Shown: positions 31,403 to 48,641 of the stretch, one piece after another
Position numbering within the stretch: position 1 is the first letter of the stretch
Layout of the letters: every line of letters begins with the position of its first letter
Source: Exiguobacterium mexicanum
GTDB taxonomy: Bacteria > Bacillota > Bacilli > Exiguobacteriales > Exiguobacteriaceae
NCBI RefSeq assembly: GCF_005960665.1
Contig: NZ_CP040676.1
Location: 1,870,501 to 1,934,500, forward strand
Length of the DNA stretch: 64,000 bases
Direction: 5' to 3'
The notes under the pieces: model-generated
The model's database searches: none
What the model saw: only the letters and a program-made list of their open reading frames with translations
What the model was told of the DNA's origin: nothing
Translations under genes and position numbers: made by a program

Positions 31403-31724
31403 GATCAAGGACCTCTTCCAAGAAGAGACCTTTTTCGAAGCCGCCTCGCTTCTCACGCTTCTCCTCACGGATGCGATTTAACTCTTCGAAGCTCGCACCA
31501 TGCATCTTTCCGAGCGTATAGACGAGTTCCAGAATGTCAGCAAGTTCTTCGAGTGATTCTTCATCGATATTCGTCTCTTCGTACTCTTTGATTTCCTCGT
31601 GAAGTTTCAAGCGGGCCTGTTCGAAATGTTCAGCTTGATTCAAGTGTTTGACGACAGGAATTTGTCCTGCTTCATGGATGATTTCAGGAATACGGTCTCG
31701 GATCAGTTTGTTATATTTAGGCAT
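31395..31724 (-). CDS. MazG-like nucleotide pyrophosphohydrolase
   Basis: 109 residues: MPKYNKLIRDRIPEII at the start, then EEIKEYEE and EELADILELVYTL. This is the EExxE...ExxD metal-binding helix pattern of the MazG/phosphoribosyl-ATP pyrophosphohydrolase superfamily. First gene of a four-gene operon, overlapping the helicase start by 8 bases. Start chosen at ATG 31724, which has a GGAGAAAATT site. It could remove (d)NTPs or modified nucleotides; this is inferred. Confidence 0.8.
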   Translation of the reverse strand: MPKYNKLIRDRIPEIIHEAGQIPVVKHLNQAEHFEQARLKLHEEIKEYEETNIDEESLEELADILELVYTLGKMHGASFEELNRIREEKREKRGGFEKGLFLEEVLDHE

Positions 31725-31937
31725 TGAATTTTCTCCTATCATTATTTTTCAGAGAATTAACTTCTCTAGGAGAGGTGATCAACAAACTCCTAGACACCTT
31801 CTCCAAAATCTACAACCATTTCCAAAAACACATCGATTGGATAACTTACCTCCCAGATTTTCTTAGAGAATATATTGCTCTTGATTAGAAAACACACCTT
31901 ATCTTCTCCTTGCAACATCACCTTTTCAATAATAAAT

Positions 31938-32556: not shown

Positions 32557-33612
32557 GACGGTTTGTCAAATTAAGCGCAACACTTCCTCGGTGAAGACCT
32601 CGTGTGCCGTTTTCCAGCCGAGACATTTCCTCGGCCGCCCGTTGATCTTGGCGAGCGCGTCCGCGAGTTCGCCCTCAACGACCTTTGAGAAGTCCGAACC
32701 CTTTGGGAAGAACTCGCGGAGAAGACCGTTGGCGTTCTCGTTGCTCCCACGTTGCCAGAACGAGTAGGGGTCGGCGAAATACATCGGTACGCCGAGGATC
32801 GCCCGGACGCGCTCGTGACAGCTGAACTCCTTGCCCCGGTCCGTCGTCGCGGTCCTGAACGTGCCTTCCGGGAAGGCGCCATGTACCGCATGGATCGCCT
32901 CCTCCATCGAGGCCGCGCTGCGGTCGGTGATCGGCAGGGCGATGTAGAACCGGCTCTTTCGTTCGATGAACGTCGCGACGCAGGCCCTCGACTTCCCACG
33001 TCCGGACACGACGGTGTCGAGCTCCCAATGGCCGAACGTCTTGATTGTGCGCACCTCTCTCGGACGTTTGGCGATGGACAGCCCGATGTTGAATCGTCCC
33101 CGTGTCTCCACCGGCTTTTGGCGCTTTCCCTTCTGGCGGAGCGCGTCGCCGGCACGTCGATCAGCCCCGCGTAGATCCAACGATAGATGGTCGAGAAGGC
33201 GATTCTGCCGTCGAAGAGACGACCCACGATCTTTTCCGGGGACCAGGTCGCCCTCAGTTTCTCGATGATCGTCTGGCGCATCGTGTCGTCGAGCTTCGTC
33301 TTGGCGCCGCAGTTGCTCTTCGCCTTGGCGTAGCGTTCCTGTGCGCGTTCGGCCGTGTAGCCGGGGTTCCGTCTGATTTCCCGCGAGACGGTCGAGGGCT
33401 GTCGCCCGAGCCGTCTCGCGATGGACCGTACGGATATCCCGAGCTCCAGGTAGGTCTCTATTTTCACGCGTTCGGCTGTGGTAAGATGGGTGTAGCTCAT
33501 AGCGATTCCTCCGTCTGAATGTGTGTTGTGGTGACTTCATTCTACACGAGGCCGTCGCTATGGGCTTTTTTGTGTTCACGTTCGGGTGTTGCACTTAATT
33601 TTATAATTCATC
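32557..33612 (-). mobile_element. IS30-family insertion sequence, copy A
   Basis: About 1056 bp and GC-rich within AT-rich surroundings. Ends are imperfect inverted repeats of about 27 bp: inner arms share AAATTAAG(C/T)GCAACAC and outer parts share GA-G---TT-T. The same ends occur in copy B (45450-46494), where sequence identity stops at the same points. Oriented so that the transposase reads leftward. No clear target duplication is visible. Confidence 0.85.
32566..33500 (-). pseudogene. IS30-family transposase, copy A, frameshifted
   Basis: The N-terminal part MSYTHLTTAERVKIETYLELG with the IS30 HTH (SIARRLGRQPSTVSREIRRN) is in one frame to about 33145. The catalytic part is in another frame, with DDE residues in HWELDTVVSG, TTDRGKEFS and NENANGLLREFF. 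Comparison with copy B, which is continuous here, shows one base missing near 33145. Unless a programmed frameshift is used, this copy is inactive. Confidence 0.85.
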
Positions 33613-33849
33613 ATAAATAAATATATATAGTTTGAATTGAGAAAAAATGAAAGATATATCTAAAAATTTATTAATATCTCTCAAGTTTAAAATATTAAAT
33701 TAATTTAGTAAGACACCAAATCCACCTTAAATTTGATATTGTTAATGATTTTTAAACCTCATTTATTTATGATACGGTTCACCGTAACGTTGGATAGGGT
33801 AAACTAGTCTAATATTGAGCAGTAAGGATGCATAAGTTTGATGATATTC
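33613..33849. other. Non-coding AT-rich stretch inside the IS30 pair
   Basis: About 240 bases, very AT-rich, between the inner end of IS30 copy A and the decayed DUF5677-like gene. I see no gene or clear signal in it. Confidence 0.5.
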
Positions 33850-34997
33850 TTACTGCTCCTTATCCACTAACAACTGGTCTTCTTTATCAGGAAAATTCTC
33901 ATACAATAGATTAGATAAATGATCCACCATCTTCATAATAAACATTCCTTGCATTTGTTCAACAATCTCACTTTCATTCTCTTGTATTAGCTGACTAAAG
34001 ACAAGTCTGTTCATCTGAATCATTTCATATGTCCCTCAGGTACCTGCAAGACTAATCCCTATATTACTTGCACCGCTTCCAAAGGATCCACTAGATGTAC
34101 TGAGTGATGATACTATAGATTTAGGTGCAGAATGGATGTTATTCGATGCAATTTTATATGGCTTCAAACCATGCTGTCTGTTAATACTTTTTCAAATCTG
34201 GTTAAATGAAGCATTTTGTCCGTTCTTCAAATACTTCTTTGCCCATATGTAGTCACTTCTCTCTTTCAAGTTAGTGAAATCTTTTCCTCTTTTCTCCGTT
34301 ATTTCACGTAAATGCACCCTTAATTCTTTCTTAACTGTTTCGTCATCAAGGCTCTCACCTACAAGTCTTTCTTGAAACATCAGGTCCTTCATTTGCATAA
34401 CAGGTAAATAATCAAAATAGCTTTCTGCTGCATCTTCACCATTCTGTACAATAAATTCACTTATTACAGCTAATTCATGTAGGACCGAAACCTTGTAATT
34501 GCACCTGTTCCAAATCCACCTTTGATTAAATATATTATTTCAGAGTATATAGAGCAGGCACGGATATGTTGGTGAAATAAAAAATCTGCTAAAGCCTTTT
34601 CTTTATTTTCATTTATTTTTTTAGAAAATAGTTCTCCTAACTCCCTACTCAATATTTCTAGTAGTTCCAAGTAATAAAACTCTAGACCATAATGTTGAGC
34701 TAACCTGTTATTAAATCCTACCCCCTCTAATCGAAGGTCTTCCCGCATTTTGTATCCAAATAAAAAAAGTAAATCATTTATATCATCGTCTTCAACCAAA
34801 TCATACTTTCCTAGGTTTTCTAAAGTCTTGGTTAATTGTTCCTCAAACTGTTCTTGTTCGTACTCTTTAAGTTTTTTACTTATCCATGACATAAAAATGA
34901 GCTTTGACAAAGAGTATCTTTCTTCTTTTTCCTTGGAAGTAGCATCTTCTAATACATCTTTCAAAAAATCTTCGTACATTGTCTGGACCCCTTTCAT
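33850..34997 (-). pseudogene. DUF5677-like gene with one frameshift and two in-frame stops
   Basis: The first 170 residues (MKGVQTMYEDFLKDV...) are intact to near 34486. There GGFGTGAITRFR changes frame and continues as VLHELAVISEFIVQNGEDAAE, the typical R-x-LHELA core of DUF5677-type proteins. In that second frame the sequence runs to 33850, broken only by TGA at 34192-34194 and TGA near 34036. The frame continues YKIASNNIHSAPK, also a family feature. A single-base deletion plus two point stops explain everything. The function of the family is unknown to me. Confidence 0.7.
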
Positions 34998-35012: not shown

Positions 35013-35873
35013 CTAGTCTACTGTGACTAATTGTCCATACTTACAAACCTCACAAACAATTAACAATTCCTCCGTATCTCTTTGTTCTCCATCAGGACTA
35101 TATATTTCAAAGTTTCTACTGCCACACTTCTTACATCGATGATTACCAAATGGATCATCTTGCTTAGCTAAAAGATTTTCAAAAGATGATGCTACTGCGG
35201 TACATAAAGTTAAACATATAGAAGCTTCATATATGGTCCTAGTATCAGAATGGGTAATTTTGTTTGCAAAATCCCAGGCCGAATAAGAAATTTTCCTTAA
35301 ATGGTCTCTCAAATCTGAATTTTCCCCACCTGGCAATAGACCACTGATTGCAATCCTACTCCTATTTTTAAAGTCACTTCGTTTGGGTTCTTCTTCTCCG
35401 TCTTGTAAGAATTCTTCAGAAAATATGTTATGACCAAGCACAATTAATGCTTCTCGACAAATCATTCCTACTGACTGTATCTCTTCTGATTCAATGGCAT
35501 TATTTAATACTGCTGCGGCTTGTGTGAGCTTTCTTCTTACAGCAATAGATATTTCTATTCCTGTTTCAATTTCTTGAATTTTTTTTGACGGCTCTTTACT
35601 GTCATCATTTAATAATCTAGTCATTAAACCTAAGTGAAAGGAGTAAGCTTCATCCGTTGAAAAATAATATGCTTGGTCTTGAGGATATAAATTCATTGGT
35701 AAACCTTCACCTTCAACCACCCACCAAGATCCATCTTCATCTGTTTTTACATTCCACACGGTGACTTCAAAGCCCAAGTCATTATATGATTGCTCTGGCT
35801 TAGAATGTATAACATTGCCTTTGCATTGTCCTTCCACATAGTTTTCAACTTCTTCTTTTGTTCTAGTGCTCAT
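35013..35873 (-). CDS. Hypothetical protein with C-terminal zinc ribbon
   Basis: 286 residues. The C-terminal HRCKKCGSRNFE...LLIVCEVCKYGQ has four cysteines in two CxxC pairs, a zinc ribbon. The middle region (SRIAISGLLPGGENSDLRDHLRKIS...ANKITHSDTRT) is helical and resembles abortive-infection or HEPN-like helical proteins only in general look. Located between the DUF5677-like pseudogene and an XRE regulator, in AT-rich DNA inside the IS30 pair. Function unknown. Confidence 0.65.
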   Translation of the reverse strand: MSTRTKEEVENYVEGQCKGNVIHSKPEQSYNDLGFEVTVWNVKTDEDGSWWVVEGEGLPMNLYPQDQAYYFSTDEAYSFHLGLMTRLLNDDSKEPSKKIQEIETGIEISIAVRRKLTQAAAVLNNAIESEEIQSVGMICREALIVLGHNIFSEEFLQDGEEEPKRSDFKNRSRIAISGLLPGGENSDLRDHLRKISYSAWDFANKITHSDTRTIYEASICLTLCTAVASSFENLLAKQDDPFGNHRCKKCGSRNFEIYSPDGEQRDTEELLIVCEVCKYGQLVTVD

Positions 35874-35908
35874 TCTTTTCTCCCTCCGTTACTGTGACTA
35901 TATAATAA

Positions 35909-35950
35909 ATAAAAGAGCAGCCTAAATATAGCTATTCATTGGCTGCTCTT
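35909..35950 (-). terminator. Terminator after the XRE gene
   Basis: 10-bp perfect stem (35913-35922 and 35941-35950) with an 18-base loop, then TTTTATTTATT on the minus strand. Confidence 0.7.
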
Positions 35951-35972
35951 CTGAAGTAGTTAATTACAAACA

Positions 35973-36302
35973 TCATTCTTCATTTAAATATTCGTCGATT
36001 TTCATTTTCACTTTTATTCGAAGGTTCTCATGACCATTTTCAATCTTTGATAAGGTTTCTAGACCAATCCCTAGTTTCCGAGCTAGCGCTCTTTGTGTTA
36101 GGCCTTCGGCTTTCCGTTTACAATAGACGTCCATTGCTAATGATGACGGCAACTCGTAATCGTCGCTGTCATCATCCCAATCTGGTTCCCAGTCGCCATT
36201 ACCTTTATTAAACTCCATGTCCAGGTATTCCTCTATACCCACTAGCGCTCGGAGTTCTCCTTCTGTTTCATACATGAAACCATGGCATAAATTGCTCTTC
36301 AT
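35973..36302 (-). CDS. XRE-family helix-turn-helix protein
   Basis: 109 residues: an acidic N-terminal half (WEPDWDDDSDDYE) and a C-terminal HTH_XRE domain (LTQRALARKLGIGLETLSKIENGHENLRI). It lies about 110 bases downstream of the res stop, on the same strand. It may regulate the restriction module or act as an antitoxin-like protein, but no partner toxin is visible. Confidence 0.8.
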   Translation of the reverse strand: MKSNLCHGFMYETEGELRALVGIEEYLDMEFNKGNGDWEPDWDDDSDDYELPSSLAMDVYCKRKAEGLTQRALARKLGIGLETLSKIENGHENLRIKVKMKIDEYLNEE

Positions 36303-36411
36303 ATTATCCGCACCTTTTAGTCAAATTACAAACAGAGTGTATTGTGTTTATCCCGTCTGTTAATTTGAGTAGAACCATTAGGTACAGATAATGCAAGGGG
36401 AAAAGATGGGT

Positions 36412-39399
36412 CTATATTCCCGTTTTGAATTTTTCATAGCTGTTAGCGAGCTTGTATGTGACCCCGTTCTCCAATGCAGCAAAGTGCTTCCGACCACATG
36501 TGATTTTTCCATCTTCTTTTAATCGAAGATCCTCCTGGTCAGTGCTCCCCTTTGTTTCAACAACGAAGAATAAAGTTTCTACCCCCTCTTTTTCAACCAA
36601 TACTGCCCAGTCAGGGTTGTAATTGCCCAGTGGTGTATCTATTACGAATGATGAAGGAAGCTTAACAAATAACTTAACGTCTTCATCACTGTTAAGCTTT
36701 TCTGCAAATGCTCGCTCTACACTGGAATCATAGCGAATATAGTTATAGACTGACTTATCATTGGACACTTCAATAGCATTTGCCTTCATATAACCGACAA
36801 GCTCTTGATGCTCGAATAAAGATTGTTGATAAAATGCATGGTCACCTATACGCTCATATTTAATGCCATCAACAATTAACTTCTTCTTTTCTCTGTTAAT
36901 GATTTTCATAACAGCTTCCATGAATGCTTGTGGATTTTTCTCAAAGTCTTTCAAGCGTTTGGAGCCAATTAAGATGTCCACAAGTGTACGTCTTTTAAGG
37001 TTGGTCTGTTCCTGTAAATAACGCAGAATGTCTGGCAGACGTCGTTTCTCTTCCAGCGCTTCGTATACACGCATTGTCTGCCCTTCTCCAGACACACCTG
37101 ATTGGTCCACTTTCAATAGGGCATTTTCTCGTTTAATTTTCCTAGCCTTAAATACGTCCAGCTTTTGTATTTCAACTATACATCGGCTCTTAAGTGTATC
37201 GGAATCCAAATCTACCGAATAAGTAGTCTTGTATTTTATTTGGTTCCATAGTTGATTAAACTCGTCGCTTAAGAGAACTTCTTTATTAAGCTTAATATCC
37301 ACTTCGTCTTTCTTATTGAAGATCGGCAGCTTCTTAATGGAATTTCTTATGACCCTTTCAATATCCTGCTTTATTTCCTTAAATTCATCTGGAACATCGA
37401 AAGTTTCATTTGCTATTGCTTCCTTCAGCTTGTTTTCAACCTTTCCTTTTTTATCAAGGAATTTCTCTTTAACAAGGAAGGAATACACTTTGGCTGAATA
37501 GTCGTAGCCTATTTCCTTGGACTCTCCAGTCACCTCATCTGTCAGAGTAATGGTAGAGAAGGATTGTTCTTCAAGATATCCAAACTTAACACCTGTCTCA
37601 TCTTCCATTTCCTTCTGAAGTGATTCAGCAAATTGTTGGTACGATTCATTTGCTATTACTGTAAGAACATTAATATTCTCGTCATACTGTCTTTGTCCAT
37701 CTTGATTTACAGATAAGCGCAAGCCACGACCAATTTTTTGCCGCTTAGTGAAAGGGTCCTTGGTTTCAACTAAAGTGCATATTTGGAAGACATTTGGGTT
37801 ATCCCATCCTTCTTTAAGGGCAGAGTGGGAAAAGATAAATCGCAACGGCGTCTCAAAGCTTAGTAGCTTTTCTTTTTCCTTCATGATGAGTTCAAATGCT
37901 GATTCATCATCTTTATTCGACCGCAGGCTGCCATCTTTCGCAACTTTACTGTCTTTATAGTTTCCACTCTTATCCCGAGAAAAGTATCCGTCATGAACTT
38001 CATCTGCACTCTGGTTTGAAATATATTGGTCTTCTTCAAAGAGCGAGCGATATTTAGGTAACTTAATAAGGGAATCATACTCTTCTTCAAAAATCTCGGC
38101 ATACTTTCCTTTTTGCCAAGGTTGTCCTTTTGGATAAACTCGATAGTTCTCTACTTTGTCTATAAAGAAAAGAGTAAGTACTTTGATTCCTTGGTGGACA
38201 AGTCTTTTTTCTTTATCTAAGTGTGTGCGGATCGCTTCTCTTATTTGATATCTCTTGAGTAAGTCATCATCGATACCACCGATCGATTCTCCAAGTTTCA
38301 GTACCTTTCCATTTTCGAATTCAACTATTTCGTTTCCAGGATAACAGTCGATACCTTCTACAATATAACCACGGTAGAGTTCCCTCTCACCAGATATTAA
38401 ATATAAATTGTTTTTATTGTTAGGATTTATTTCTTTTTTCACTTTGGTGACAGTACCATTTTTCTTTTTCTCGTCTATTTCAACAGTGGCTTTGTATCCA
38501 CTTTTGTTAGAGACACTGACTAGCTTAATATATGGATCGTTAAAATCCTCATCAGAATTGACGGATAGTACTTCAATTTTCTTAACGAGCTTTTTCTCAT
38601 AAGCATCAACAGGGTCTAGCTTGTACATTAGATTGTATGTGTCCCTATGGGTAGCAGAATACCTCAATTTACAAAGTGGATTTAAAGAAGCAATAGCTTC
38701 CTTTGCTTTATCCGTGTTATCAACACTTTGCGGTTCATCAATAATAACGATAGGGTTTGTTTCTTGAATAAATTGAATAGGTTTTTTCCCGTTCATTGTG
38801 TCTCTTTCACGGTGGATAAGGTTAGCCTTGTTTTCTTTTTCTGGGTCATCAAAGCTTTTCTTAAAGGCATCAATATTAATAATCATTACTTCAATATTGG
38901 TGCTTGTTGCATATTCACGAACCTGCTCCAGTTTGGATGAATCATATTTAAAGTAGTGACAATGCTGCCCAGGGTACTCGTTTGCAAAATGCTCCTCAGT
39001 CATCTGAAACGATTTATATACACCTTCACGAATAGCAACACTTGGCACAACAATAATAAATTTTGAAAAACCATATAGTTTATTCAGCTCAAAAATACTT
39101 CTGGTATAAACGTATGTTTTTCCCGTTCCCGTTTCCATTTCGACTGTAAAATTCCAGTCTTGTATAGTAGTGCTCTTTTTAAGATGGTTTCTCACCTGTA
39201 CCTTCTGAACATTTTCAAGAACTTCTGCTTCGGACAATTCCAGCTTGTTTCCGATCCCAAGCTCTGTTATTTCTTGCCCAACAATATCACCCATGCTTAC
39301 GGTAAAGTTAGATACTTTTACCGTTTGGCCTTCAAAAATATCAGTGATCGATTGAATGGCATCAAGCTGATACTGTTGTTCATCGAACTTAATTTTCAT
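36412..39399 (-). CDS. res: Type III restriction enzyme, Res subunit
   Basis: 995 residues. SF2 translocase motifs: Walker A METGTGKT at 88-95, Walker B IVIIDEPQS (about 220), SATHRD, and QKIGRGLRLS near 560. The C-terminal nuclease has a PD-(D/E)xK core: PD at 929-930, then E948 and K950 in VVETKG. It cleaves DNA after ATP-driven communication between two unmodified sites, together with Mod. It begins 13 bases after mod, behind GGAGTGG. Last gene of the four-gene operon. Confidence 0.92.
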   Translation of the reverse strand: MKIKFDEQQYQLDAIQSITDIFEGQTVKVSNFTVSMGDIVGQEITELGIGNKLELSEAEVLENVQKVQVRNHLKKSTTIQDWNFTVEMETGTGKTYVYTRSIFELNKLYGFSKFIIVVPSVAIREGVYKSFQMTEEHFANEYPGQHCHYFKYDSSKLEQVREYATSTNIEVMIINIDAFKKSFDDPEKENKANLIHRERDTMNGKKPIQFIQETNPIVIIDEPQSVDNTDKAKEAIASLNPLCKLRYSATHRDTYNLMYKLDPVDAYEKKLVKKIEVLSVNSDEDFNDPYIKLVSVSNKSGYKATVEIDEKKKNGTVTKVKKEINPNNKNNLYLISGERELYRGYIVEGIDCYPGNEIVEFENGKVLKLGESIGGIDDDLLKRYQIREAIRTHLDKEKRLVHQGIKVLTLFFIDKVENYRVYPKGQPWQKGKYAEIFEEEYDSLIKLPKYRSLFEEDQYISNQSADEVHDGYFSRDKSGNYKDSKVAKDGSLRSNKDDESAFELIMKEKEKLLSFETPLRFIFSHSALKEGWDNPNVFQICTLVETKDPFTKRQKIGRGLRLSVNQDGQRQYDENINVLTVIANESYQQFAESLQKEMEDETGVKFGYLEEQSFSTITLTDEVTGESKEIGYDYSAKVYSFLVKEKFLDKKGKVENKLKEAIANETFDVPDEFKEIKQDIERVIRNSIKKLPIFNKKDEVDIKLNKEVLLSDEFNQLWNQIKYKTTYSVDLDSDTLKSRCIVEIQKLDVFKARKIKRENALLKVDQSGVSGEGQTMRVYEALEEKRRLPDILRYLQEQTNLKRRTLVDILIGSKRLKDFEKNPQAFMEAVMKIINREKKKLIVDGIKYERIGDHAFYQQSLFEHQELVGYMKANAIEVSNDKSVYNYIRYDSSVERAFAEKLNSDEDVKLFVKLPSSFVIDTPLGNYNPDWAVLVEKEGVETLFFVVETKGSTDQEDLRLKEDGKITCGRKHFAALENGVTYKLANSYEKFKTGI

Positions 39400-39412
39400 G
39401 TTACCACTCCTT

Positions 39413-41308
39413 TTATATCACACGAATATCTTCTACACCATATCGCTTAAGGATTTGCTGAGCATTTGTACGAACAGTATCATCTTTAAACCCTTCATCA
39501 TAAAATACAATTCGTGCTGGTTTTTGTTTGGCCATTTCTTCAATGTGTTCCAATGTTAAATCCCTTTCTAAACAGATGAGTAAATATCCCATACCTACAA
39601 AATAAATATTCTTTCCAGCAATCTTTGTTTCTTCAATAGGAACTGTTAATTCAATACCATATTTAAGTAGAATTTCATACACAACATCCTCTTGACTTCG
39701 TCCCTCTTTTACTGGCTCAACTAGGTCTAATAAATTTTTTTCCAGATTTATCGACTCTTCGTCCCATAGTTTTAAGTTTGTTTCGTCAAGCTTAAACACC
39801 CTGAAGCCAATGTCAAGATTTTCAATTCCTTTCTTATCTTTATTTTCCTCCACAATCTTTCCACCAGCACGACGAATCCTTTCCTTACCAACATCGCAAA
39901 TATTTTTAAAGCCATCTTTAAATGCAACAGATTTTTCATCCATTAATTCAGGTAATTGGACCATAATAAATCTCCTATTTCCTTCATCCTCTGAATTCAA
40001 TTGCATAACTGCATGAGCAGTGGTTCCTGAACCTGAAAAGAAATCTAATATTATGTCATCCTTATTAGTACCAATTAATAAAGCTTGTTTTAATAGATCA
40101 ATCGGCTTTGGAAAATCAAAATAAGAAGATAAACCGATTTTACCTAGCTCTACTGTACCTTTTTCTGTTATGAATCCGATATCATCCCAAATTGACTTAG
40201 GTTTGTAAGTTGACTTTCTATATTTTTCATAAATGTTGTAATTACCATCATTTTTCCTTTTTGCTACTAAATTACTCATTAAGGTATTAGTTTGGATATT
40301 ATCATTAGAAAGCGTCTTGCCCCATCTCCAGCAACTTTCTATTCCACTTGAATTAAAAGGGTAGACTTCTATATTGTATTCGTCACTTTTCTCAAGAGAA
40401 ACAGGATAAAATCCATCTTTATCCAAATTTTTAGTATTTACATAAAAAGGATAAAAAAGGTTAGGACGATTAAACTTACCAAATTTAGGATTCCTATTTC
40501 TTAATTCCCTTATGTTGAATTTCCCAATATTATCTTCTAAATTCAGATCACTATTTTCTTCACTTTTGGGTAATTCATTGAATTCTGTTTCGTTCTTTTT
40601 GGTATAAATCAATAGGTATTCATGGGTCTTAGAAACTTGCTTATATGTTTGACCACGTTTATTTGATTGAACAATAATTTGTGCAAATAAGTTTTCCTCT
40701 CCAAATACTTCATCACATAATTTTCTTAGGTTAGTTAACTCATTATCATCTATCGAAATAAAGATAGACCCATCTTCTCTTAATAAATTCCTTGCTAACC
40801 TTAAACGTGGGTACATCAAATTTAACCAATCTGTATGGTAGCGACCATTTGTTTCTGGATTTGACTTCATATTTTCTTGAATATTTTTCTTATAGTTTTT
40901 GATATTATCACTAAAGTCATCTTCATATACAAAATCGTTTCCTGTATTATACGGTGGATCAATGTAAATCATTTTTACTTTATTTCGGTATGAATTTTGT
41001 AAGACACGAAGGACCTCTAAGTTGTCTCCTTCAATGTATAGGTTTTGTGTTGTATCCCAGTTTACACTTTCTTCTTTGCTGGGGATTAGTGTACCTGTAG
41101 TCTGCTTCTGAGAAAGTTGAATTGCTTCCGTTTTCCCATTCCAGGTAAATTCATACCGTTCTTTTTCCTTTTCCACATTTTCTCCAAGAGCAAGGCGTAA
41201 TTTATCAATATCAACTTTGTTCTCAGTGAATATTTCTGGAAATAATTCTTTTAGTTTTTCAATATTATCCTGAACAACATTAAATGTTCTTCCTTCTAAC
41301 TTCTGCAA
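39413..41308 (-). CDS. mod: Type III site-specific DNA (adenine-N6) methyltransferase, Mod subunit
   Basis: 631 residues. Motif IV DPPYNTG at 117-123 comes before the SAM-binding motif DFFSGSGTTAHAV (about 420), the beta-class order used by type III Mod proteins. The variable target-recognition region lies between them, at about 190-390. It recognises the DNA site and methylates one strand. The start is TTG 41308 with AAGGAG nine bases upstream; the DUF4391 stop codon lies immediately before it. Confidence 0.93.
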   Translation of the reverse strand: MQKLEGRTFNVVQDNIEKLKELFPEIFTENKVDIDKLRLALGENVEKEKERYEFTWNGKTEAIQLSQKQTTGTLIPSKEESVNWDTTQNLYIEGDNLEVLRVLQNSYRNKVKMIYIDPPYNTGNDFVYEDDFSDNIKNYKKNIQENMKSNPETNGRYHTDWLNLMYPRLRLARNLLREDGSIFISIDDNELTNLRKLCDEVFGEENLFAQIIVQSNKRGQTYKQVSKTHEYLLIYTKKNETEFNELPKSEENSDLNLEDNIGKFNIRELRNRNPKFGKFNRPNLFYPFYVNTKNLDKDGFYPVSLEKSDEYNIEVYPFNSSGIESCWRWGKTLSNDNIQTNTLMSNLVAKRKNDGNYNIYEKYRKSTYKPKSIWDDIGFITEKGTVELGKIGLSSYFDFPKPIDLLKQALLIGTNKDDIILDFFSGSGTTAHAVMQLNSEDEGNRRFIMVQLPELMDEKSVAFKDGFKNICDVGKERIRRAGGKIVEENKDKKGIENLDIGFRVFKLDETNLKLWDEESINLEKNLLDLVEPVKEGRSQEDVVYEILLKYGIELTVPIEETKIAGKNIYFVGMGYLLICLERDLTLEHIEEMAKQKPARIVFYDEGFKDDTVRTNAQQILKRYGVEDIRVI

Positions 41309-42073
41309 TTAACACAACTCCTTTATTTGCTGTAATTGAATATTGACTTGCTGTTCTTGCCGCTTTATCTTCATGTGCAAATCCATCTTTACACCAAAAT
41401 CAACTTGGCCTTTCTGCTCAAGCTGCAATTGTTCGACATCTTTGAGATTTTTTTGAACATTACTTAATATGTTGACTGCTGCCTCACGCTTTTCTGAACT
41501 GGAAGGTATCGCCCCTACCAACTGAATCAATTCTTCACATCTTATCCATTGATGAATATCCTCGTAAATGCAATATAGGTTTTCAAAAGATAAATTTGAA
41601 ACGACCAATGTGTTCAGTAATTTGGAATATGCGGTATCTTCTTCACTCGGGTTAAACCAGTCGGTAATGGTAGGTTGTTCAACAACAACTTTGGTCTTGT
41701 CATTTTTATTAAGCCTTTTATGGCTTGTACTCATAAGAATCTGACCTTCTGGTGATGACAAGATTAATACCACTGGATTAAGAATAGACTTATGAACGGC
41801 CCCAATAATCCTGTTTATATTTTTAGTCATTCTTAGCTCGACATATATCCAAACCACTTCTGCATAATGGAATTCTTCATCCTGGTAGATTGGAATATTC
41901 ATACTCTGCTGATTCATAACACTTAATAGATAAATCCCCTCTATCTGGGAAGTGAACATTTCCTTCTCGGATGTAGAAAGGTCCGCTTGTGTAAAAAATG
42001 CTTTCTTTGGTATCTTACGGTTTAGCAAAGCACGTTGAGGTATCTGCAAACGATTAATCAACCATTCCCTCAT
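41309..42073 (-). CDS. DUF4391-like protein
   Basis: 254 residues. The pattern of a short basic N-terminus, an EVVWIYVELR strand, LSTSHKRLN-like MSTSHKRLN and a C-terminal coiled-coil (KRQEQQVNIQLQQ) agrees with DUF4391 as I remember it. The family is often found beside type III restriction genes; its function is unknown to me. It sits between the SNF2-type helicase (8-base gap) and mod (no gap), so it is clearly part of the same operon. Confidence 0.75.
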   Translation of the reverse strand: MREWLINRLQIPQRALLNRKIPKKAFFTQADLSTSEKEMFTSQIEGIYLLSVMNQQSMNIPIYQDEEFHYAEVVWIYVELRMTKNINRIIGAVHKSILNPVVLILSSPEGQILMSTSHKRLNKNDKTKVVVEQPTITDWFNPSEEDTAYSKLLNTLVVSNLSFENLYCIYEDIHQWIRCEELIQLVGAIPSSSEKREAAVNILSNVQKNLKDVEQLQLEQKGQVDFGVKMDLHMKIKRQEQQVNIQLQQIKELC

Positions 42074-42081
42074 TCCATCAC

Positions 42082-45000
42082 CTACTTTATCACTAAAAAT
42101 GATATCAATTCAAAGTCTTCCGAAGTTGTATTAGAGTCCTGTAAAAGACTAGAATTCCCAAGACTGAACAACGATTCCATGCCTTGCTCTTCTACAATAC
42201 CAAGAACAAATTCGACTGCCTTGTCTAATAGATACTTGTAAGAAGACATGTCCTTCATATCCTCTGTTTCATGATTGAACTGATGAATCAACTCGTTGAA
42301 CACGTCCCCTTGACCATTAGCAACTTTACGGAAGATATCCAGTATTTGCTTTGTCTTTAAATGTCCTAGTAACACCTCTCCATCCGTATTCATATAAACA
42401 AGATAATATGGATATAGTGCGCTTGTTTCTTTTACTTGTGCTGCTGCATTGCGTTGTTTGATGCAGAATATTACCCCTGGTTCGGTATCAGAAGACGGAG
42501 CCAACTGAAGCGATGTAACTGCATGTAATCCCAAGGGAGCAGTCTCAATTTTCTTCTTATTGGCGTCCATATAATCAAGTAAATCCATTTTAAAGTCGTT
42601 CAGAGTCAAGTCTGTGATAGAGATTCCCCCAGAGATGTCCTCTAAATCAACTACTTCTTCTTGTAGTTGTTTCAATTGCTTTTTACGATATTCCAAATCG
42701 TTCATTTGCTTCTTTTCATCGTATTCTATTACATTCTCTTCACCTGTTGCTGAAATATCAAGGAGCACCATTCTACCGCTGACACGTGCTTCCAAATTAA
42801 TATACTCATCAAGGTCGATGTTCGGCCAGAAGTTCACCAGTTGGATAACATCATTCTTAGAGCCTAAACGATCGATTCGACCAAACCGTTGGATTATTCG
42901 AACTGGATTCCAGTGTATATCATAATTAATTAAATAATCACAATCTTGCAGGTTCTGACCTTCTGAAATACAGTCAGTTGCAATCAATATGTCGATTTCA
43001 TCCTGTATTTTTGAATCAACTTTGTTTCTTTCCTTCGAAACAGGTGAAAAGTTGGTCAGTATAGAATTTAAATCTTTCTGGATTCCTTTTAATGTAGTCT
43101 GGTTGCCTCCAGAACCAGTGACTAGAGCTGAGTTAACACCATGCTTTTCCAACACCCATTGCGATAACTCTTTATACAAATAACTTGCTGTATCTGCAAA
43201 AGCTGTGAAAATGATGATTTTTTTATTTTCTCCATTGATAGGATGGAGCAGCTTTTGGTCAATCATTGATTTAAGTTTATTCAACTTGGCATCACGTGAA
43301 GCTTGTACTTTTGCTGATTCAATGAGTAGCTGCTCAAGTTTCTCTCTATCATCCTGTAAATCTTGCTTCCACTTAATGCGGTCGATATCCTGGAGCAGTA
43401 CTTTTACCTTCGATCCTATTAGCATGTTTTCAACATCATCATCGTCAATATCGACTTCATTAATATTAATATCAGCATTCAAGTATTGTTGAATGTTATC
43501 AAGCTTTAGTAACAAGTCATCAATTTTTGTTAAAAGTGATGCTACTGTCATACCAAATGAATGAATAGAGCTTTCCATCCGTTTAAGCAAGTTAACCCTC
43601 ATTAAATGGACAAGACTTCGTTCACGGTCAATCTGCTTAAATACTGAACCACCTTTTACCTTCATATCATATTTTCGGCTGTATTCCTCTTGCTTTTCAG
43701 GCATTACATATTTTAATGGAGAATAGGCACTTAAATTCAGTCTGTTAATGAGCCTATTGACTTCCTTTATTTCAGGAAATTCATTGTCCTCGTCAATATC
43801 AGCATGTACATTTCTCGGTTTCAACCGTTCTGGAAATTTCCCAATCTCCGACATATTGTAGTATTTTTCAATATGTTTTCTTGAACGAGCAATAGTTACT
43901 GCATCAAGCAATTTGAAGTAGTCAAAGTTTAACATTTCAAGTAGGGTGTCTGACTTCCGGTCTTCATCATCTAACTTGAGCCATTTATTGAATGCAAGCT
44001 GTGCCTTTCTTAATGTTTGTTCAATGCTTTCAATGCCTGCTGATTCAAGTGCTTCATCATTACCTTCCGTAATAAAAGCAACTTGGTTTTTCAAATCATT
44101 CATTTTATTGTTTACAGGCGTCGCTGATAGCATTAATACCTTTGTCTTAACACCTGCTTTAATGATTTGGTTCATCAATCTGGAATAACGAGTTTCCCTG
44201 TCATTTCTAGCCTGGTTATTCCTGAAATTATGTGACTCATCAATAACAACTAAATCGTAGTTACTCCAGTTCACAGCAGCCAAATTAATATCCCCTGACA
44301 AACCGCCTGTACGGCTCAAATCGGTATGATTTAACACATCGTAGTTGAAGCGATCAGTAGAGAGGACATTTCTCTTATCATTTTGAGTGTAAATAAGCCA
44401 GTTTTCTCTTAATTTTTTGGGGCACAAAACGAGTACTCTGTCATTTCTCAACTCGTAATACTTAATAACTGCAAGGGCTTCGAACGTCTTCCCCAAACCT
44501 ACACTATCTGCAATGATACAACCGTTATGCTTTTCCAATTTATCAATAGCTCCGAGTACACCATCTTTTTGGAATTTATAAAGCTTATTCCATATCGTAG
44601 TGTCTTTAAAGCCTGTTTTTGATTTTACAATCGCATCTTCATCGAATTCTTCCAGGTAGTCACTGAAAATATTATATAGCGTGACATAGTAAAGAAATTC
44701 TGGAGAGTGATTTTCATAAATTGCTGCGATTCTTTCCAACACTTCCTCTTGTACCTCTTCAACAATAGCATCGTTCTTCCACACATCATTGAACCACTGG
44801 ATATATTGTTTTGTTAATAGAGGTTCATCCATTAGTGAATTCATATGAAGACTAGGCGAGTATGTATAGCCTAATCCACTGCTGGTAAAATCGGAGCTCC
44901 CTTGAATAGCCACTGATGAACCATCTTTATTTTCAATATGGAACAGGCGATTCTGTGTTAATGGTGCCGTCAAAGATTTCATCTTTACTTTTGAACTTAT

Positions 45001-45324
45001 CCAGTCAGCACATTCTTTAGCAATTTTCGCCTGTGTAAGTTCATTCCGCATCTTAATTTCGAGTTCTGAACCAGATAACCTTTTCTCTCGACCTGACTTT
45101 TCAATGTCTGTAGTACCTTTTGTATGTTTTTCTGAAGTAAAGGTGGGATCGATAAATAAAAACCGTACCTCTTCCACCTTCATTAATTCCTTCTTTAAAG
45201 CCTCGAATGCATATATCGTAAAGTAGGATGACATGATCGCTACCTTGGCATCTTTTTTAAAATATGGTTTCAATGCATCTCCTACAATGCCAGACCTTTT
45301 GTTATCTAACATTTTCCCTATCAT
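42082..45324 (-). CDS. SNF2-type helicase with N-terminal PLD-like domain
   Basis: 1080 residues. The N-terminal ~200 residues are PLD-like, with GSSDFTSSGLG at 142-152. The expected HxK reads HIEN (129-132), so the lysine is missing and nuclease activity is doubtful. SNF2 motifs follow: DSVGLGKT 273-280, VIDESHNFRN, LSATPVNN and, in the second RecA domain, QRFGRIDRLGS. The C-terminal part is long and helical. First gene of the operon; the ATG lies behind GGGGGTG. It may translocate on DNA to assist or regulate the Mod-Res complex. The promoter must lie in the 125 bases between it and IS30 copy B. Confidence 0.88.
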   Translation of the reverse strand: MIGKMLDNKRSGIVGDALKPYFKKDAKVAIMSSYFTIYAFEALKKELMKVEEVRFLFIDPTFTSEKHTKGTTDIEKSGREKRLSGSELEIKMRNELTQAKIAKECADWISSKVKMKSLTAPLTQNRLFHIENKDGSSVAIQGSSDFTSSGLGYTYSPSLHMNSLMDEPLLTKQYIQWFNDVWKNDAIVEEVQEEVLERIAAIYENHSPEFLYYVTLYNIFSDYLEEFDEDAIVKSKTGFKDTTIWNKLYKFQKDGVLGAIDKLEKHNGCIIADSVGLGKTFEALAVIKYYELRNDRVLVLCPKKLRENWLIYTQNDKRNVLSTDRFNYDVLNHTDLSRTGGLSGDINLAAVNWSNYDLVVIDESHNFRNNQARNDRETRYSRLMNQIIKAGVKTKVLMLSATPVNNKMNDLKNQVAFITEGNDEALESAGIESIEQTLRKAQLAFNKWLKLDDEDRKSDTLLEMLNFDYFKLLDAVTIARSRKHIEKYYNMSEIGKFPERLKPRNVHADIDEDNEFPEIKEVNRLINRLNLSAYSPLKYVMPEKQEEYSRKYDMKVKGGSVFKQIDRERSLVHLMRVNLLKRMESSIHSFGMTVASLLTKIDDLLLKLDNIQQYLNADININEVDIDDDDVENMLIGSKVKVLLQDIDRIKWKQDLQDDREKLEQLLIESAKVQASRDAKLNKLKSMIDQKLLHPINGENKKIIIFTAFADTASYLYKELSQWVLEKHGVNSALVTGSGGNQTTLKGIQKDLNSILTNFSPVSKERNKVDSKIQDEIDILIATDCISEGQNLQDCDYLINYDIHWNPVRIIQRFGRIDRLGSKNDVIQLVNFWPNIDLDEYINLEARVSGRMVLLDISATGEENVIEYDEKKQMNDLEYRKKQLKQLQEEVVDLEDISGGISITDLTLNDFKMDLLDYMDANKKKIETAPLGLHAVTSLQLAPSSDTEPGVIFCIKQRNAAAQVKETSALYPYYLVYMNTDGEVLLGHLKTKQILDIFRKVANGQGDVFNELIHQFNHETEDMKDMSSYKYLLDKAVEFVLGIVEEQGMESLFSLGNSSLLQDSNTTSEDFELISFLVIK

Positions 45325-45449
45325 TCCTACACCCCCAAAAAGACAAAAATATAACTATTCTACTACTTTCATTCTACAAGACTTTCAATCAAGGATAAAT
45401 CAATTTTACAAAAATAGTAATATCTCATTCTAACCGATTTTTTATATGT

Positions 45450-46494
45450 GATGAATTATAAAATTAAGTGCAACACCCGAACGTGAACGCAAAAAAGCCC
45501 ATAGCGATAGCCCCGTGTAGAATGAAGTTACCACACAAACATTCAGACGGAGGAATCGCTATGAGCCACACCCATCTTACCACACGAGAACGCGTGAAAA
45601 TAGAGACCTATCTGGAGCTCGGGATGTCCATCCGGTCCATCGCGAGACGGCTCGGGCGACAGCCCTCGACCGTCTCGCGGGAGATCAGAAGGAACCCCGG
45701 CTACGAATCGGGACGCGCACAGGAACGCTATGTGAAGATGAAGGCCAATTGCGGCGCCAAGACGAAGCTCGACGAGGCGACGCGTCTGACGATCACCGAG
45801 AAACTGCGGGCGGCAACAGATCGTGGGTCGTCTCTTCGACGGGGAAGTCGCCTTCTCGACCATCTATCGCTGGATCTACTCAGGGCTGATCGACGTGCCG
45901 ACGACCGTGCTCCGCCAGAAAGGCAAGCGTCAGAAACCAATGGAGACACGCGGACGATTCAACGTCGGGCTGTCCATCGCCAAACGCCCGAGAGAGGTGC
46001 GCCCATGCGAGACGTTCGGCCACTGGGAGCTCGACACCGTGGTGTCCGGGCGTGGGAAATCGAAGGCGTGCGTCGCGACGTTCATCGAACGAAAGAGCCG
46101 GTTCTACATCGCCCTGCCGATTGCAGACCGTAGCGCGGCCTCGATGGAGGGGGCGATCCAAGTGGTCCACGGCTCCTTCCCTGAGGGCGCGTTCAGGACG
46201 GCGACGACGGACCGCGGCAAAGAGTTCAGCTGCCACGAGCGCGTCCGGGCGACCCTCGGCGTGCCGCTCTATTTCGCCGACCCGTACACGTCCTGGCAAC
46301 GAGGGAGCAACGAAAACGTCAACGGTCTTCTCCGCGAGTTCTTCCCGAAAGGAACGGACTTCGCAGAGGTCGGTGACGGCGAACTCGCGGACGCGCTCGC
46401 CAAAATCAACGGGCGGCCGAGGAAGTGCCTCGGCTGGCGAACAGCACACGAGGCATTCAACGATGAAGTGTTGCGCTTAATTTGACAAACCGTC
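45450..46494 (+). mobile_element. IS30-family insertion sequence, copy B
   Basis: About 1045 bp, same family and same ends as copy A, but in the opposite orientation. The two copies therefore flank the restriction module as inverted repeats, with transposase 5' ends facing inward. A 2-bp GT on both sides (45448-45449 and 46495-46496) could be a target duplication. It is inserted against a large serine recombinase gene. Confidence 0.85.
45561..46485 (+). pseudogene. IS30-family transposase, copy B, frameshifted
   Basis: MSHTHLTTRERVKIETYLELG and the HTH are in the first frame up to about 45815. The DDE part (HWELDTVVSG, TTDRGKEFS, NENVNGLLREFF) is in another. Compared with copy A, 11 bases are missing between LRA and VGRLFDG near 45815. 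This is a different lesion from copy A, so the two copies decayed independently. Confidence 0.85.
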
Positions 46495-46498
46495 GTGA

Positions 46499-47439
46499 AC
46501 AATCCTACCTAAAATCCCTTTGATGCGCTTATTAGAGGATGCCAAACAGAAGAAATTTGAAGCAATTGTTGTTTACAAGCTGGACAGATTAGCTAGGAAA
46601 ACACGGGATTCACTCGAAATTGTAGAAACTTTAGGTAGCCATGGCGTACAACTCATAAGTTTGTCAGAAAACATAGACACCACGACTCCCCATGGAAAGA
46701 TGTTTTATACAGTATTAAGCTCATTTGCTGAAATGGAGAGGGAGCAAATTGTAGGTAGGGTTAAAATGGGAATGACCCAAAGAGCTAAGGAAGAAAAATG
46801 GAATGGTGGACAATGCTTTAAATATTACGCTAAGGAAAAGAAGCTATTAGTAAATGAAGCTGAAGCGAGAATTGTAAAAGAAATATTTGAATACGCTGAT
46901 CAAGGTTTTGGTTACAAGAAGATTGTAGGTATTCTCAATCGGAAAGGATACACCACAAAGAGAGGAAACGTCTTCTCTATCGGTACATTGAAAGGGGTCT
47001 TGGATAATCCTGTTTATATCGGGCAAGTTCGCTTTAATCAATATGAGAATTGGGCAGAAAAGAGACGTTCAGGTAAAAATAAAGATGCCATTATAGTTGA
47101 AGGAGAACATGAAGCAATCATTCCTGAAGACTTATGGGAAAGGGTACAGCAGAAGCGCTCTGCTCGATCATACAAAGCTATACAATCAAATCAACCTTTT
47201 ATATTCTCACCAAGCTTATTCGCTGCCCTCAGTGCGGTGCTGGAATAGTTGCTGGCAAATCAAAAAGTGCGAATAAAACGTATCGGTACTATAAATGCGG
47301 CACCTTTCATAATAAGGGAGCCTCTGAATGCTCTGCTAATAGCATCAATGCAGATAAGGCAGAACGTCAGGTCCTTGAGGAATTTAAACGCATTGTAACT
47401 GAATCACAATTTCTTCAACGGTTGATTTATCAGTTTTAG
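46499..47439 (+). pseudogene. Large serine recombinase, 5'-truncated and frameshifted
   Basis: Begins in frame only a few bases past the IS30 end, at MRLLEDAKQKKFEAIVVYKLDRLARKTRDSL. The N-terminal ~60 residues with the catalytic serine are gone. The rest of the resolvase domain (SSFAEMEREQIVGRVKMGM) and the Recombinase domain (YKKIVGILNRKGY, NPVYIGQVRFNQYENW) follow. The frame breaks at a TTTT run (47197-47200, one extra base) and continues as the zinc ribbon LIRCPQCGAGIVAG...YYKCG. It ends early at LIYQF. Not functional, but evidence that the island was once integrated by such an enzyme. Confidence 0.85.
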
Positions 47440-47828: not shown

Positions 47829-48641
47829 TTATACACTCCCTTGCAGAATCCCTAAATCTTTCTCAGTCATGTTCGGAATTTCTTGTTTCATCTCTTTGAT
47901 ACTCGCTTCAAGTTCCTCATCAGAGAGATCCATGCTTTCTTCAAGTGCTGTCAGTAGTCTATTTCCCATTTGACGCATGGATGAATACGTGATCCAACCT
48001 GAAATCACGCCGCCAGCGATCGGAATCACTTTAGAGATTCCTTGTGCAAAAGATTTTCTCGTCATCTTCAACCCGATGTAGCTTCCCATTTTCTTAAGAA
48101 TCGGATAATAGATGGTCTGCATCATTGCTCGATTCGGAATTTTCTTTAATGCTTGTTTGGATAATTGCGAAGACAACACTTTAATGGTGGCCGTCGCTCC
48201 GCCGACACCAAACATGACGCCGAGAAACAAAATCAATTCTCCGCTCACTCGATTGACATCTAGGCCATTCTCACTCCAAAAATCTTCATATCCATAGATA
48301 TAACCAATTTCTTGAGCCACTCGAAGCGCCACACCAAAGAATTGAGCCGTGTCCGCTGGAACAGTGGCCGCCATGACCACCCCACCAGGTAACCCCGCGG
48401 CAAACGAAGCCGATGAACTTTTCATCGTTCGATTCAAAATGGTCTTCTTCGCGACTCGTCGAATCAACTTTTTTGAAACGTTTGATTGAACCGGTCCTTT
48501 TTCAAGGATGTCTGCTAATTGTTTCGCGGTCACGTGCTTACTAAAACTTTTTGCTAAAAACTCTGTTCGATCTACTTTCACCCCTGGTAATTTCACGACA
48601 TTGATCACTAACTGCTCGAAAAATTTTGCTCCATTCAACAT
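47829..48641 (-). CDS. EcsC-family-like protein
   Basis: 270 residues. The central segment AAGLPGGVVMAATVPADTAQFFGVALRVAQEIGYIYGY and LFLGVMFGVGGATATIK follow the EcsC pattern. Several moderately hydrophobic glycine-rich helices suggest membrane association. Function unknown; EcsC proteins are linked to ABC exporters in Bacillus, but none is adjacent here. An AAAGG ribosome site precedes the ATG. Confidence 0.7.
   Translation of the reverse strand: MLNGAKFFEQLVINVVKLPGVKVDRTEFLAKSFSKHVTAKQLADILEKGPVQSNVSKKLIRRVAKKTILNRTMKSSSASFAAGLPGGVVMAATVPADTAQFFGVALRVAQEIGYIYGYEDFWSENGLDVNRVSGELILFLGVMFGVGGATATIKVLSSQLSKQALKKIPNRAMMQTIYYPILKKMGSYIGLKMTRKSFAQGISKVIPIAGGVISGWITYSSMRQMGNRLLTALEESMDLSDEELEASIKEMKQEIPNMTEKDLGILQGSV

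What the first reader, a model, noticed from the sequence alone, without database searches (positions are those of the whole stretch)
36412..45324. Type III restriction-modification operon extended by a PLD/SNF2 helicase and a DUF4391 protein
Four genes run on one strand with gaps of 8, 0 and 13 bases: SNF2 helicase, DUF4391, Mod, Res. Classical type III systems need only Mod and Res. The tight coupling, with the extra genes placed first, means they are made before the methylase and nuclease and probably belong to the same machine. DISARM also joins a SNF2 protein, a methylase and a PLD protein, but its DrmA and DrmB are absent here. I cannot match this set to a named system with certainty.
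Basis: partly seen in the sequence, partly recalled or inferred. Interest (0 to 1): 0.75.

Follow-up and report, generated by a model that had tools for sequence, protein, structure and literature searches.

The report
Four-gene type III restriction-modification subtype
This is a bacterial DNA-defence operon in which the usual methylase-nuclease pair is always preceded by a DNA-motor protein and a small unstudied partner; the same four-gene order recurs across bacteria and in archaea, so a large branch of a textbook defence system has two extra parts that nobody has tested.

Summary
In detail: SNF2 helicase, DUF4391, Mod and Res run on one strand with gaps of 8, 0 and 13 bases. Mod and Res are true type III subunits (EcoP15I homologues with intact motifs). 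The ordered set is a deeply conserved, widespread subtype. All 62 SNF2-retrieved genome loci with enough downstream sequence carry SNF2, DUF4391 and Mod in this order, and 61 have a detectable Res, in many bacterial phyla; an archaeal plasmid has it too. I found no intact SNF2-DUF4391 pair shown to lack Mod-Res. On the Res tree these systems form one fully supported branch apart from EcoPI-type systems, with several later losses of SNF2-DUF4391.

Corrections: the PLD-like domain has lost its HxK catalytic motif in all but about two of 110 homologues, so the SNF2 protein is a motor, not a nuclease. In several loci SNF2/DUF4391 has decayed while Mod-Res is intact, so it is not needed for self-protection.

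Closest prior art: Murray 2021 reported an extra ATPase before mod in Eco86II. I located that operon; its SNF2 is of a different (DrmD-like) subfamily, DUF4391 is absent, and its Res is unrelated by BLAST. Probable role: an accessory translocase module that boosts or broadens restriction. Untested.

The parts
42082..45324 (-). S: SNF2/RapA-like dsDNA translocase, 1080 aa, with an N-terminal degenerate (catalytically dead) PLD-like domain
   Evidence: Pfam SNF2-rel_dom, Helicase_C; helicase motifs invariant in 28 homologues; HxK lost in all but about 2 of 110; closest solved structures by sequence and fold include RapA and SNF2 remodelers
41309..42073 (-). D: DUF4391 protein, 254 aa; predicted alpha/beta domain plus C-terminal helical hairpin; no conserved catalytic residues, so probably an adaptor
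   Evidence: PF14335 E=5e-44; AlphaFold2 mean pLDDT 95.3; no clear match in the PDB or viral structure libraries apart from the helical hairpin; only M1, P12, K23 nearly invariant
39413..41308 (-). M: type III Mod, beta-class amino-methyltransferase, 631 aa; target-recognition region differs from close relatives at about 40047-40775
   Evidence: PADLOC MTase_III 711 bits; homologous to EcoP15I Mod 4zcf over 16-623; motifs; unalignable stretch against L105 inside 85-87% identical DNA
36412..39399 (-). R: type III Res, SF2 helicase plus C-terminal PD-(D/E)xK endonuclease, 995 aa
   Evidence: RE_endonuc E=2e-38; PADLOC REase_III 1014 bits; homologous to EcoP15I Res 4zcf, E=2e-60
35973..36302 (-). 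Small HTH (HipB/Xre-like) protein downstream of Res; travels with the operon in close relatives, possible regulator
   Evidence: HTH_3 E=3.5e-10; 67% identical homologue at the same place in L084/L105/L106 only
32557..33621 (-). IS30-family copy, frameshifted, inverted relative to the other copy; flank of the acquired segment
   Evidence: Inverted repeats I1-I4, 88-93% complementary; transposase ORF broken
45441..46494 (+). IS30-family copy, frameshifted; other flank of the acquired segment, ending about 116 bases upstream of the SNF2 start

Best explanation
This is a horizontally acquired member of a distinct, ancient and widespread subtype of type III restriction-modification system with four core genes in fixed order: SNF2 motor (S), DUF4391 (D), Mod (M), Res (R). 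SHOWN here by comparative evidence: the order, the near-obligate linkage of S-D to M-R, one deep clade of Res, several secondary losses of S-D, and loss of the PLD active-site motif. INFERRED: M methylates an asymmetric site and, with R, recognises unmethylated invading DNA and cuts it, as EcoP15I does. S and D form a tightly coupled pair: D is a non-enzymatic adaptor with a coiled-coil hairpin and S is an ATP-driven duplex-DNA translocase whose dead PLD domain serves as a DNA- or protein-binding platform. The S-D pair is not needed for methylation or for protection of the host. It most likely boosts or broadens restriction by the M-R core, for example by moving along phage DNA and clearing bound proteins or delivering and activating Res where the canonical two-site mechanism works poorly.
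For: Order S-D-M in 62/62 judgeable GTDB loci, with a detectable Res in 61, and in the phylum sample; 29 of 30 strong S hits in a 398-genome sample have D on the same contig, the exception being a contig edge. S-D is the tightest junction (76/82 within 60 bp, 30/82 exactly the 4-base overlap, only 3 with inserts of 300 bp or more), whereas D|M and M|R carry such inserts in 22 and 26 of 82. Pairwise distances of S track Res best (Mantel r 0.906; Mod-Res 0.836; permutation maximum about 0.1). Res tree: all S-D systems and their derivatives on one side of a 100/100 branch from EcoPI-type systems; an AU test rejects (p=0.0035) placing the L185/L186/L189 loci that lack S-D outside the S-D clade, so they are best read as losses. 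S helicase motifs invariant. S/D decayed or truncated with M and R intact: L088, L093, L094, L184, L072. Published parallel: the extra ATPase gene of Eco86II was not needed for methylation and no peptides of it were seen in a cleavage-competent preparation (PMC8259958).
Against: No experiment on any S-D-M-R system was found. Decay of S-D with M-R intact could also mean S-D is an independent add-on. No complex was modelled. The Eco86II ATPase is a different SNF2 subfamily, so its result may not transfer. Mantel correlations are inflated by shared inheritance, and the variable target-recognition domain lowers the Mod values. The 80 GTDB loci were found through S, so that set alone cannot show how often M-R lacks S-D. 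Apparent decay in draft genomes may in part be sequencing error.
Confidence: 0.5

Rival explanations
1. S-D is a second, independent antiviral effector that uses the Mod methylation mark for self/non-self discrimination, in the manner proposed for DISARM, and silences or blocks phage DNA without cutting; Mod-Res is a separate arm.
For: S resembles the DISARM helicase DrmD and BREX and Dpd helicases in the helicase part; the PLD nuclease is dead so S itself cannot cut; Mod-Res persists without S-D in several loci.
Against: No intact S-D pair was shown to lack Mod-Res where flanking DNA was sufficient; S distances track Res more closely than Mod; DrmA and DrmB are absent.
Confidence: 0.2
2. S-D is a control module: it displaces or disassembles Mod-Res complexes on the host chromosome (restriction alleviation) to limit self-damage.
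For: SNF2 proteins of the RapA type act by remodelling protein-DNA complexes (established knowledge; RapA is among the closest structures).
Against: Natural loss or decay of S-D with intact Mod and Res in at least five loci, including a near-identical Res pair L066 (S-D intact) and L184 (S remnant), shows that Mod-Res is tolerated without it.
Confidence: 0.12
3. The co-localisation only reflects passenger genes in a mobile defence island; S-D has no functional tie to type III R-M.
For: The window operon lies in an AT-rich segment between two IS30 copies, and other defence genes often sit inside these operons.
Against: Fixed order, near-zero gaps, distribution over many phyla, one clade on the Res tree and congruent distances are not expected of passengers.
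Confidence: 0.03
4. S-D counters phage anti-restriction: S strips or D binds phage inhibitors or DNA-coating proteins, protecting Mod-Res rather than adding a new activity.
For: D evolves fast (16-27% identity to all but one of its 29 aligned homologues), as expected of a component under phage pressure; it is dispensable for the core.
Against: No direct evidence; fast evolution can also follow from a structural adaptor role.
Confidence: 0.15

Closest known systems
Type III restriction-modification, EcoP15I / EcoPI
   Same: Mod and Res are homologous to the EcoP15I subunits (4zcf), with the same catalytic motifs and adjacent mod-res order.
   Different: EcoPI-type systems have only mod and res and lie on the other side of a fully supported branch of the Res tree; the window system has the S-D pair first.
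Eco86II / BspHIV type III systems with an additional helicase-like ATPase (Murray et al. 2021, PMC8259958)
   Same: A SNF2-type helicase gene lies 5' of mod-res and is not needed for methylation.
   Different: I located the presumed Eco86II locus in E. coli NCTC86 (NZ_LT601384 5046030-5055447): its SNF2 (963 aa) is DrmD-like (664 bits) and aligns to S only in the helicase core at 33%; there is no DUF4391; Mod is 1040 aa; Res (1126 aa) shows no significant BLAST similarity to the window Res. BspHIV was not examined.
Mod-Res-X-SNF2 operons of Lactobacillales plasmids (L211-L213)
   Same: Type III Mod-Res joined to a SNF2 helicase and a protein of unknown function.
   Different: The SNF2 (620-630 aa) and its partner (about 430 aa) are downstream; the SNF2 has no significant BLAST match to S; Res belongs to the EcoPI side of the tree.
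DISARM
   Same: SNF2 helicase (DrmD), methyltransferase and PLD-type domain occur together.
   Different: DrmA (DUF1998 helicase) and DrmB are absent; the methylase is type III Mod; the PLD is degenerate and fused to the SNF2 protein.
BREX-related 'BR' systems with HKD-Swi2/Snf2 helicase and N6-MTase (PMC12839542)
   Same: HKD domain at the N-terminus of a Swi2/Snf2 helicase plus a DNA methylase.
   Different: BR Type-2 is described with an HKD-endoDNase as primary effector and with DUF3780; here the HKD is lost and the partners are DUF4391, Mod and Res.
PADLOC-DB model C3a139 'HKD+Snf2'
   Same: Best PADLOC match of S (473 bits); a bare candidate model.
   Different: No partners are given in the model, and it also matches a non-helicase protein with 581 bits, so it is not a clean family.

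Membership tests
Type III restriction-modification | Mod: beta-class amino-methyltransferase with DPPY and FxGxG motifs, homologous to known type III Mod | tested here: met
Type III restriction-modification | Res: SF2 helicase with C-terminal PD-(D/E)xK endonuclease, homologous to EcoP15I Res | tested here: met
Type III restriction-modification | mod and res adjacent on one strand | tested here: met
   13-base gap, same strand
Type III restriction-modification | Mod2Res complex, one-strand methylation of an asymmetric site, cleavage needing two unmethylated sites | not testable with these tools
   Needs biochemistry and methylome sequencing
EcoPI/EcoP15I-type (two-gene) type III branch | Res within the EcoPI-type clade and no other core genes | tested here: not met
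   Window Res lies in the sister branch; two extra core genes
Eco86II-type type III with an extra ATPase | DrmD-like SNF2 immediately 5' of mod, and Eco86II-type Mod and Res | tested here: not met
   different SNF2 subfamily, DUF4391 between S and Mod, Res not similar by BLAST
DISARM | DrmA (YprA/DUF1998 helicase) and DrmB present | tested here: not met
   PADLOC scans of the operon and of the larger neighbouring ORFs from 26.7 to 49.9 kb give no DrmB, and DrmA only as a weak match of S's helicase part
DISARM | Active PLD-type nuclease DrmC | tested here: not met
   PLD relic in S without HxK; the separate intact-HKD helicase at 29048-31468 only weakly matches DrmC models
BREX / BREX-related | PglZ and BrxC/PglY-type components | tested here: not met
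   No such match
HKD-Snf2 helicase-nuclease (active) | HxK(x)nD...GS catalytic motif in the PLD domain | tested here: not met
   Absent in the window protein; retained at the expected place only in L066 and L120 of 110 aligned homologues

The most novel reading that the evidence does not exclude
A large part of what is annotated as two-gene type III restriction-modification is really a four-component machine in which a nuclease-dead SNF2 motor and its DUF4391 adaptor add a second, motor-driven activity to Mod-Res. SNF2 motors were recruited to type III systems at least three separate times, implying a shared unmet need, such as acting on protein-coated or single-site phage DNA, that the classical type III mechanism does not meet.
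Probability: 0.3. Interest if true: 0.75.

Novelty: new variant of a known kind. Interest (0 to 1): 0.55.

Why it matters
Type III systems are taught as Mod plus Res. In a 398-genome sample of this phylum, 24 of 55 strong Res hits have both S and D on the same contig, and of the 27 with neither, most lie on short contigs where this cannot be judged. The extra pair is therefore the rule rather than the exception in this branch, yet DUF4391 is named in a single unrelated paper of the library searched. If S-D is needed for efficient restriction, in vitro knowledge based on EcoP15I describes only part of the family. The system occurs on E. coli plasmids and chromosomes, so it can be tested at once in laboratory E. 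coli.

Tried and rejected
Counting S with PADLOC C3a139: abandoned below about 370 bits because weak hits are other helicases and the model also matches an unrelated protein; own HMMs were used. Active PLD nuclease in S: rejected. Catalytic role for DUF4391: no invariant acidic/lysine pattern and no clear fold match; the PDB second look was dominated by the helical hairpin, so the N-terminal domain's fold is only weakly tested. S-D as host self-protection: disfavoured by natural decay with intact Mod-Res. Identity of Murray's extra ATPase with S: rejected after locating the Eco86II operon in NCTC86. Promoter and terminator scan: no better than shuffles. A paired fold of S with D was not possible with the tools.
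Full report
CHECK. The four genes are present exactly as described: S (SNF2, 42082-45324), D (DUF4391, 41309-42073), M (Mod, 39413-41308, TTG start) and R (Res, 36412-39399), all on the minus strand, with gaps of 8, 0 and 13 bases. Family and motif searches confirm the annotations. Mod and Res are homologous to EcoP15I Mod and Res (4zcf) with intact catalytic motifs, so the core is a bona fide type III system by sequence.

IS THE SET REAL? In a 398-genome sample of the phylum, DUF4391 occurs in 34 genomes. After fetching the surroundings, the order S-D-M-R was seen wherever the contig was long enough and the genes were not decayed. A scan of 84,980 species genomes with the S alignment returned the 80 best loci. 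All 62 with at least 6.5 kb downstream (four of the 84 loci analysed were plasmid loci) have S, D and M in that order, and 61 of them also a detectable Res; the exception, the archaeon Methanobrevibacter curvatus (L126), has a fragmented Mod and no Res found. Hosts span Bacillota, Pseudomonadota, Bacteroidota, Chloroflexota, Planctomycetota, Verrucomicrobiota, Nitrospinota, Acidobacteriota and others. Plasmids carry it too, including one of the archaeon Methanomethylovorans. In E. coli, 54, 10 and 23 of 5426 complete genomes matched three different versions.

ONE SUBTYPE, WITH LOSSES. On a tree of 113 Res proteins, all S-D systems and their derivatives lie on one side of a fully supported branch; EcoPI-type two-gene systems and the Mod-Res-X-SNF2 systems lie on the other (careful tree of 37 rows, 100/100). 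Loci inside the clade that lack S-D are nested: L184 is a near copy of L066 at Res and keeps only a 273-base S remnant; L207 (Lactococcus plasmid, IS element upstream of mod) is sister to L206 (Listeria plasmid with S upstream of mod). An AU test rejects placing L185/L186/L189 outside the clade (p=0.0035). The simplest reading is one gain of S-D followed by several losses; unrooted counts alone cannot prove direction.

ANATOMY. S-D is the tightest junction: 76 of 82 complete loci have an S-D gap within 60 bases, 30 exactly the 4-base overlap, and only 3 have inserts of 300 bases or more, against 22 for D|M and 26 for M|R. Inserted genes that were identified are optional defence-type cargo: SIR2 with HerA, OLD-type nuclease, PrrC-like AAA_13, Schlafen AlbA_2, RhuM, Fic, GmrSD, DUF2130. 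Distance matrices agree strongly; S with Res is the best pair (Mantel r 0.906; Mod-Res 0.836; permutation maximum about 0.1). Shared inheritance explains most of this, so it is read only as 'inherited as a unit'.

THE PLD DOMAIN IS DEAD. Four of 28 S proteins still match Pfam PLDc_2, so the N-terminus is PLD-derived. Of 110 aligned S proteins only L066 and L120 keep the HxK motif at the expected place; the window protein and all the others have lost it. The SNF2 motor motifs are invariant across 28 homologues. S is therefore best seen as a translocase without its own nuclease. The AlphaFold2 model of S is of medium quality (pLDDT 74), with RapA and SNF2 remodelers as closest folds.

DUF4391. 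The model is confident (pLDDT 95): an alpha/beta domain followed by a long helical hairpin. There is no clear match in solved or viral structures apart from the hairpin and no sequence relative in the PDB apart from coiled-coil matches. Only M1, P12 and K23 are nearly invariant. An adaptor role is inferred.

WHAT NATURAL DECAY SAYS. L088, L093, L094, L184 and L072 have broken, truncated or missing S (D too in some) with intact-looking Mod and Res. Host DNA is therefore protected without S-D, which argues against a restriction-alleviation role. The converse, S-D intact with Res broken (L087, L178), is uninformative because Res loss is harmless. Draft-genome errors may account for some cases; L184 and L094 are remnants, not single frameshifts.

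PRIOR ART. DUF4391 appears in one paper of the open library, as a table entry unrelated to this question. Murray et al. 2021 (PMC8259958) describe an extra helicase-like ATPase 5' of mod in Eco86II and BspHIV, close homologues in hundreds of genomes, no need for it in methylation, and its absence from a cleavage-competent preparation. I located the presumed Eco86II operon in E. coli NCTC86 (5046030-5055447): SNF2 963 aa, Mod 1040 aa, Res 1126 aa, no DUF4391. Its SNF2 is DrmD-like (664 bits), aligns to S only in the helicase core (33%), and its Res has no significant BLAST match to the window Res. A third arrangement, Mod-Res-X-SNF2, occurs on Lactobacillales plasmids; the gene list of a Staphylococcus haemolyticus SCC element looks similar. 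SNF2 motors thus appear to have joined type III systems at least three times; separate recruitment is inferred from different SNF2 subfamilies, partners, gene order and Res lineages.

ORIGIN OF THE WINDOW COPY. The segment between two inverted, frameshifted IS30 copies (32557-33621 and 45441-46494) has 35.5% GC against 53.7% in the window ends. The unit S-D-M-R plus a small HTH gene (35899-45315) is 85-87% identical to Chryseomicrobium except for 40047-40775 inside Mod, the expected place of the target-recognition domain: a fairly recent transfer between genera, with swapped specificity.

MECHANISM, GRADED. Four-gene subtype: about 0.97. S-D acts in the same pathway as Mod-Res: about 0.85. S translocates on DNA: about 0.8 (family knowledge plus intact motifs). 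S lacks nuclease activity: about 0.9. S-D boosts or broadens restriction: about 0.5. Rivals are listed with their tests.

VERDICT. New variant of a known kind, with high conservation and no experiment yet; interest 0.55.

Noticed in passing
window 29045-31468 (-) with 31395-31742 (-): An intact-HKD PLD-SF2 helicase (matches PADLOC type IV restriction models at 323 bits) next to a MazG-like protein: a separate defence-like pair just outside the IS30-bracketed segment.
   Followed up: partly
window 32557-33621 and 45441-46494: Two inverted, about 89% identical, frameshifted IS30-family copies bracket the low-GC segment like an old composite transposon; no obvious target duplication at the outer ends.
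   Followed up: partly
window 40047-40775: The Mod target-recognition region is unalignable to Chryseomicrobium while flanking DNA is 85-87% identical, indicating a specificity swap.
   Followed up: partly
window 46520-47248 (+): A serine recombinase lacking its N-terminus starts 26 bases after the IS30 copy, apparently truncated by the insertion.
   Followed up: no
window 34470-34997 and 35013-35873 (-): Two ORFs next to the operon with no match in Pfam, NCBIfam or PADLOC and no homologue in the related loci fetched.
   Followed up: partly
window 47829-48641 (-): EcsC-like protein matching the PADLOC candidate defence model PDC-S30 at 339 bits.
   Followed up: no
L096 8129-12010: PADLOC model C3a139 'HKD+Snf2' matches this 1293-aa non-helicase protein (beside a YprA/DUF1998-like helicase) at 581 bits, so the model seems to mix unrelated families.
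   Followed up: yes
L211, L212, L213: Mod-Res-(about 430 aa unknown)-SNF2 operons on Lactobacillales plasmids: another type III system joined to a SNF2 motor.
   Followed up: partly
L222 6031-15448: Presumed Eco86II operon located in E. coli NCTC86: DrmD-like SNF2, 1040-aa Mod, 1126-aa Res; a third type III plus SNF2 architecture.
   Followed up: yes
L070, L074, L085, L103, L077, L101 and others: Optional effector-like genes (SIR2/HerA, OLD, PrrC-like, Fic, GmrSD, RhuM, Schlafen) sit between D and Mod or Mod and Res, but hardly ever between S and D.
   Followed up: yes
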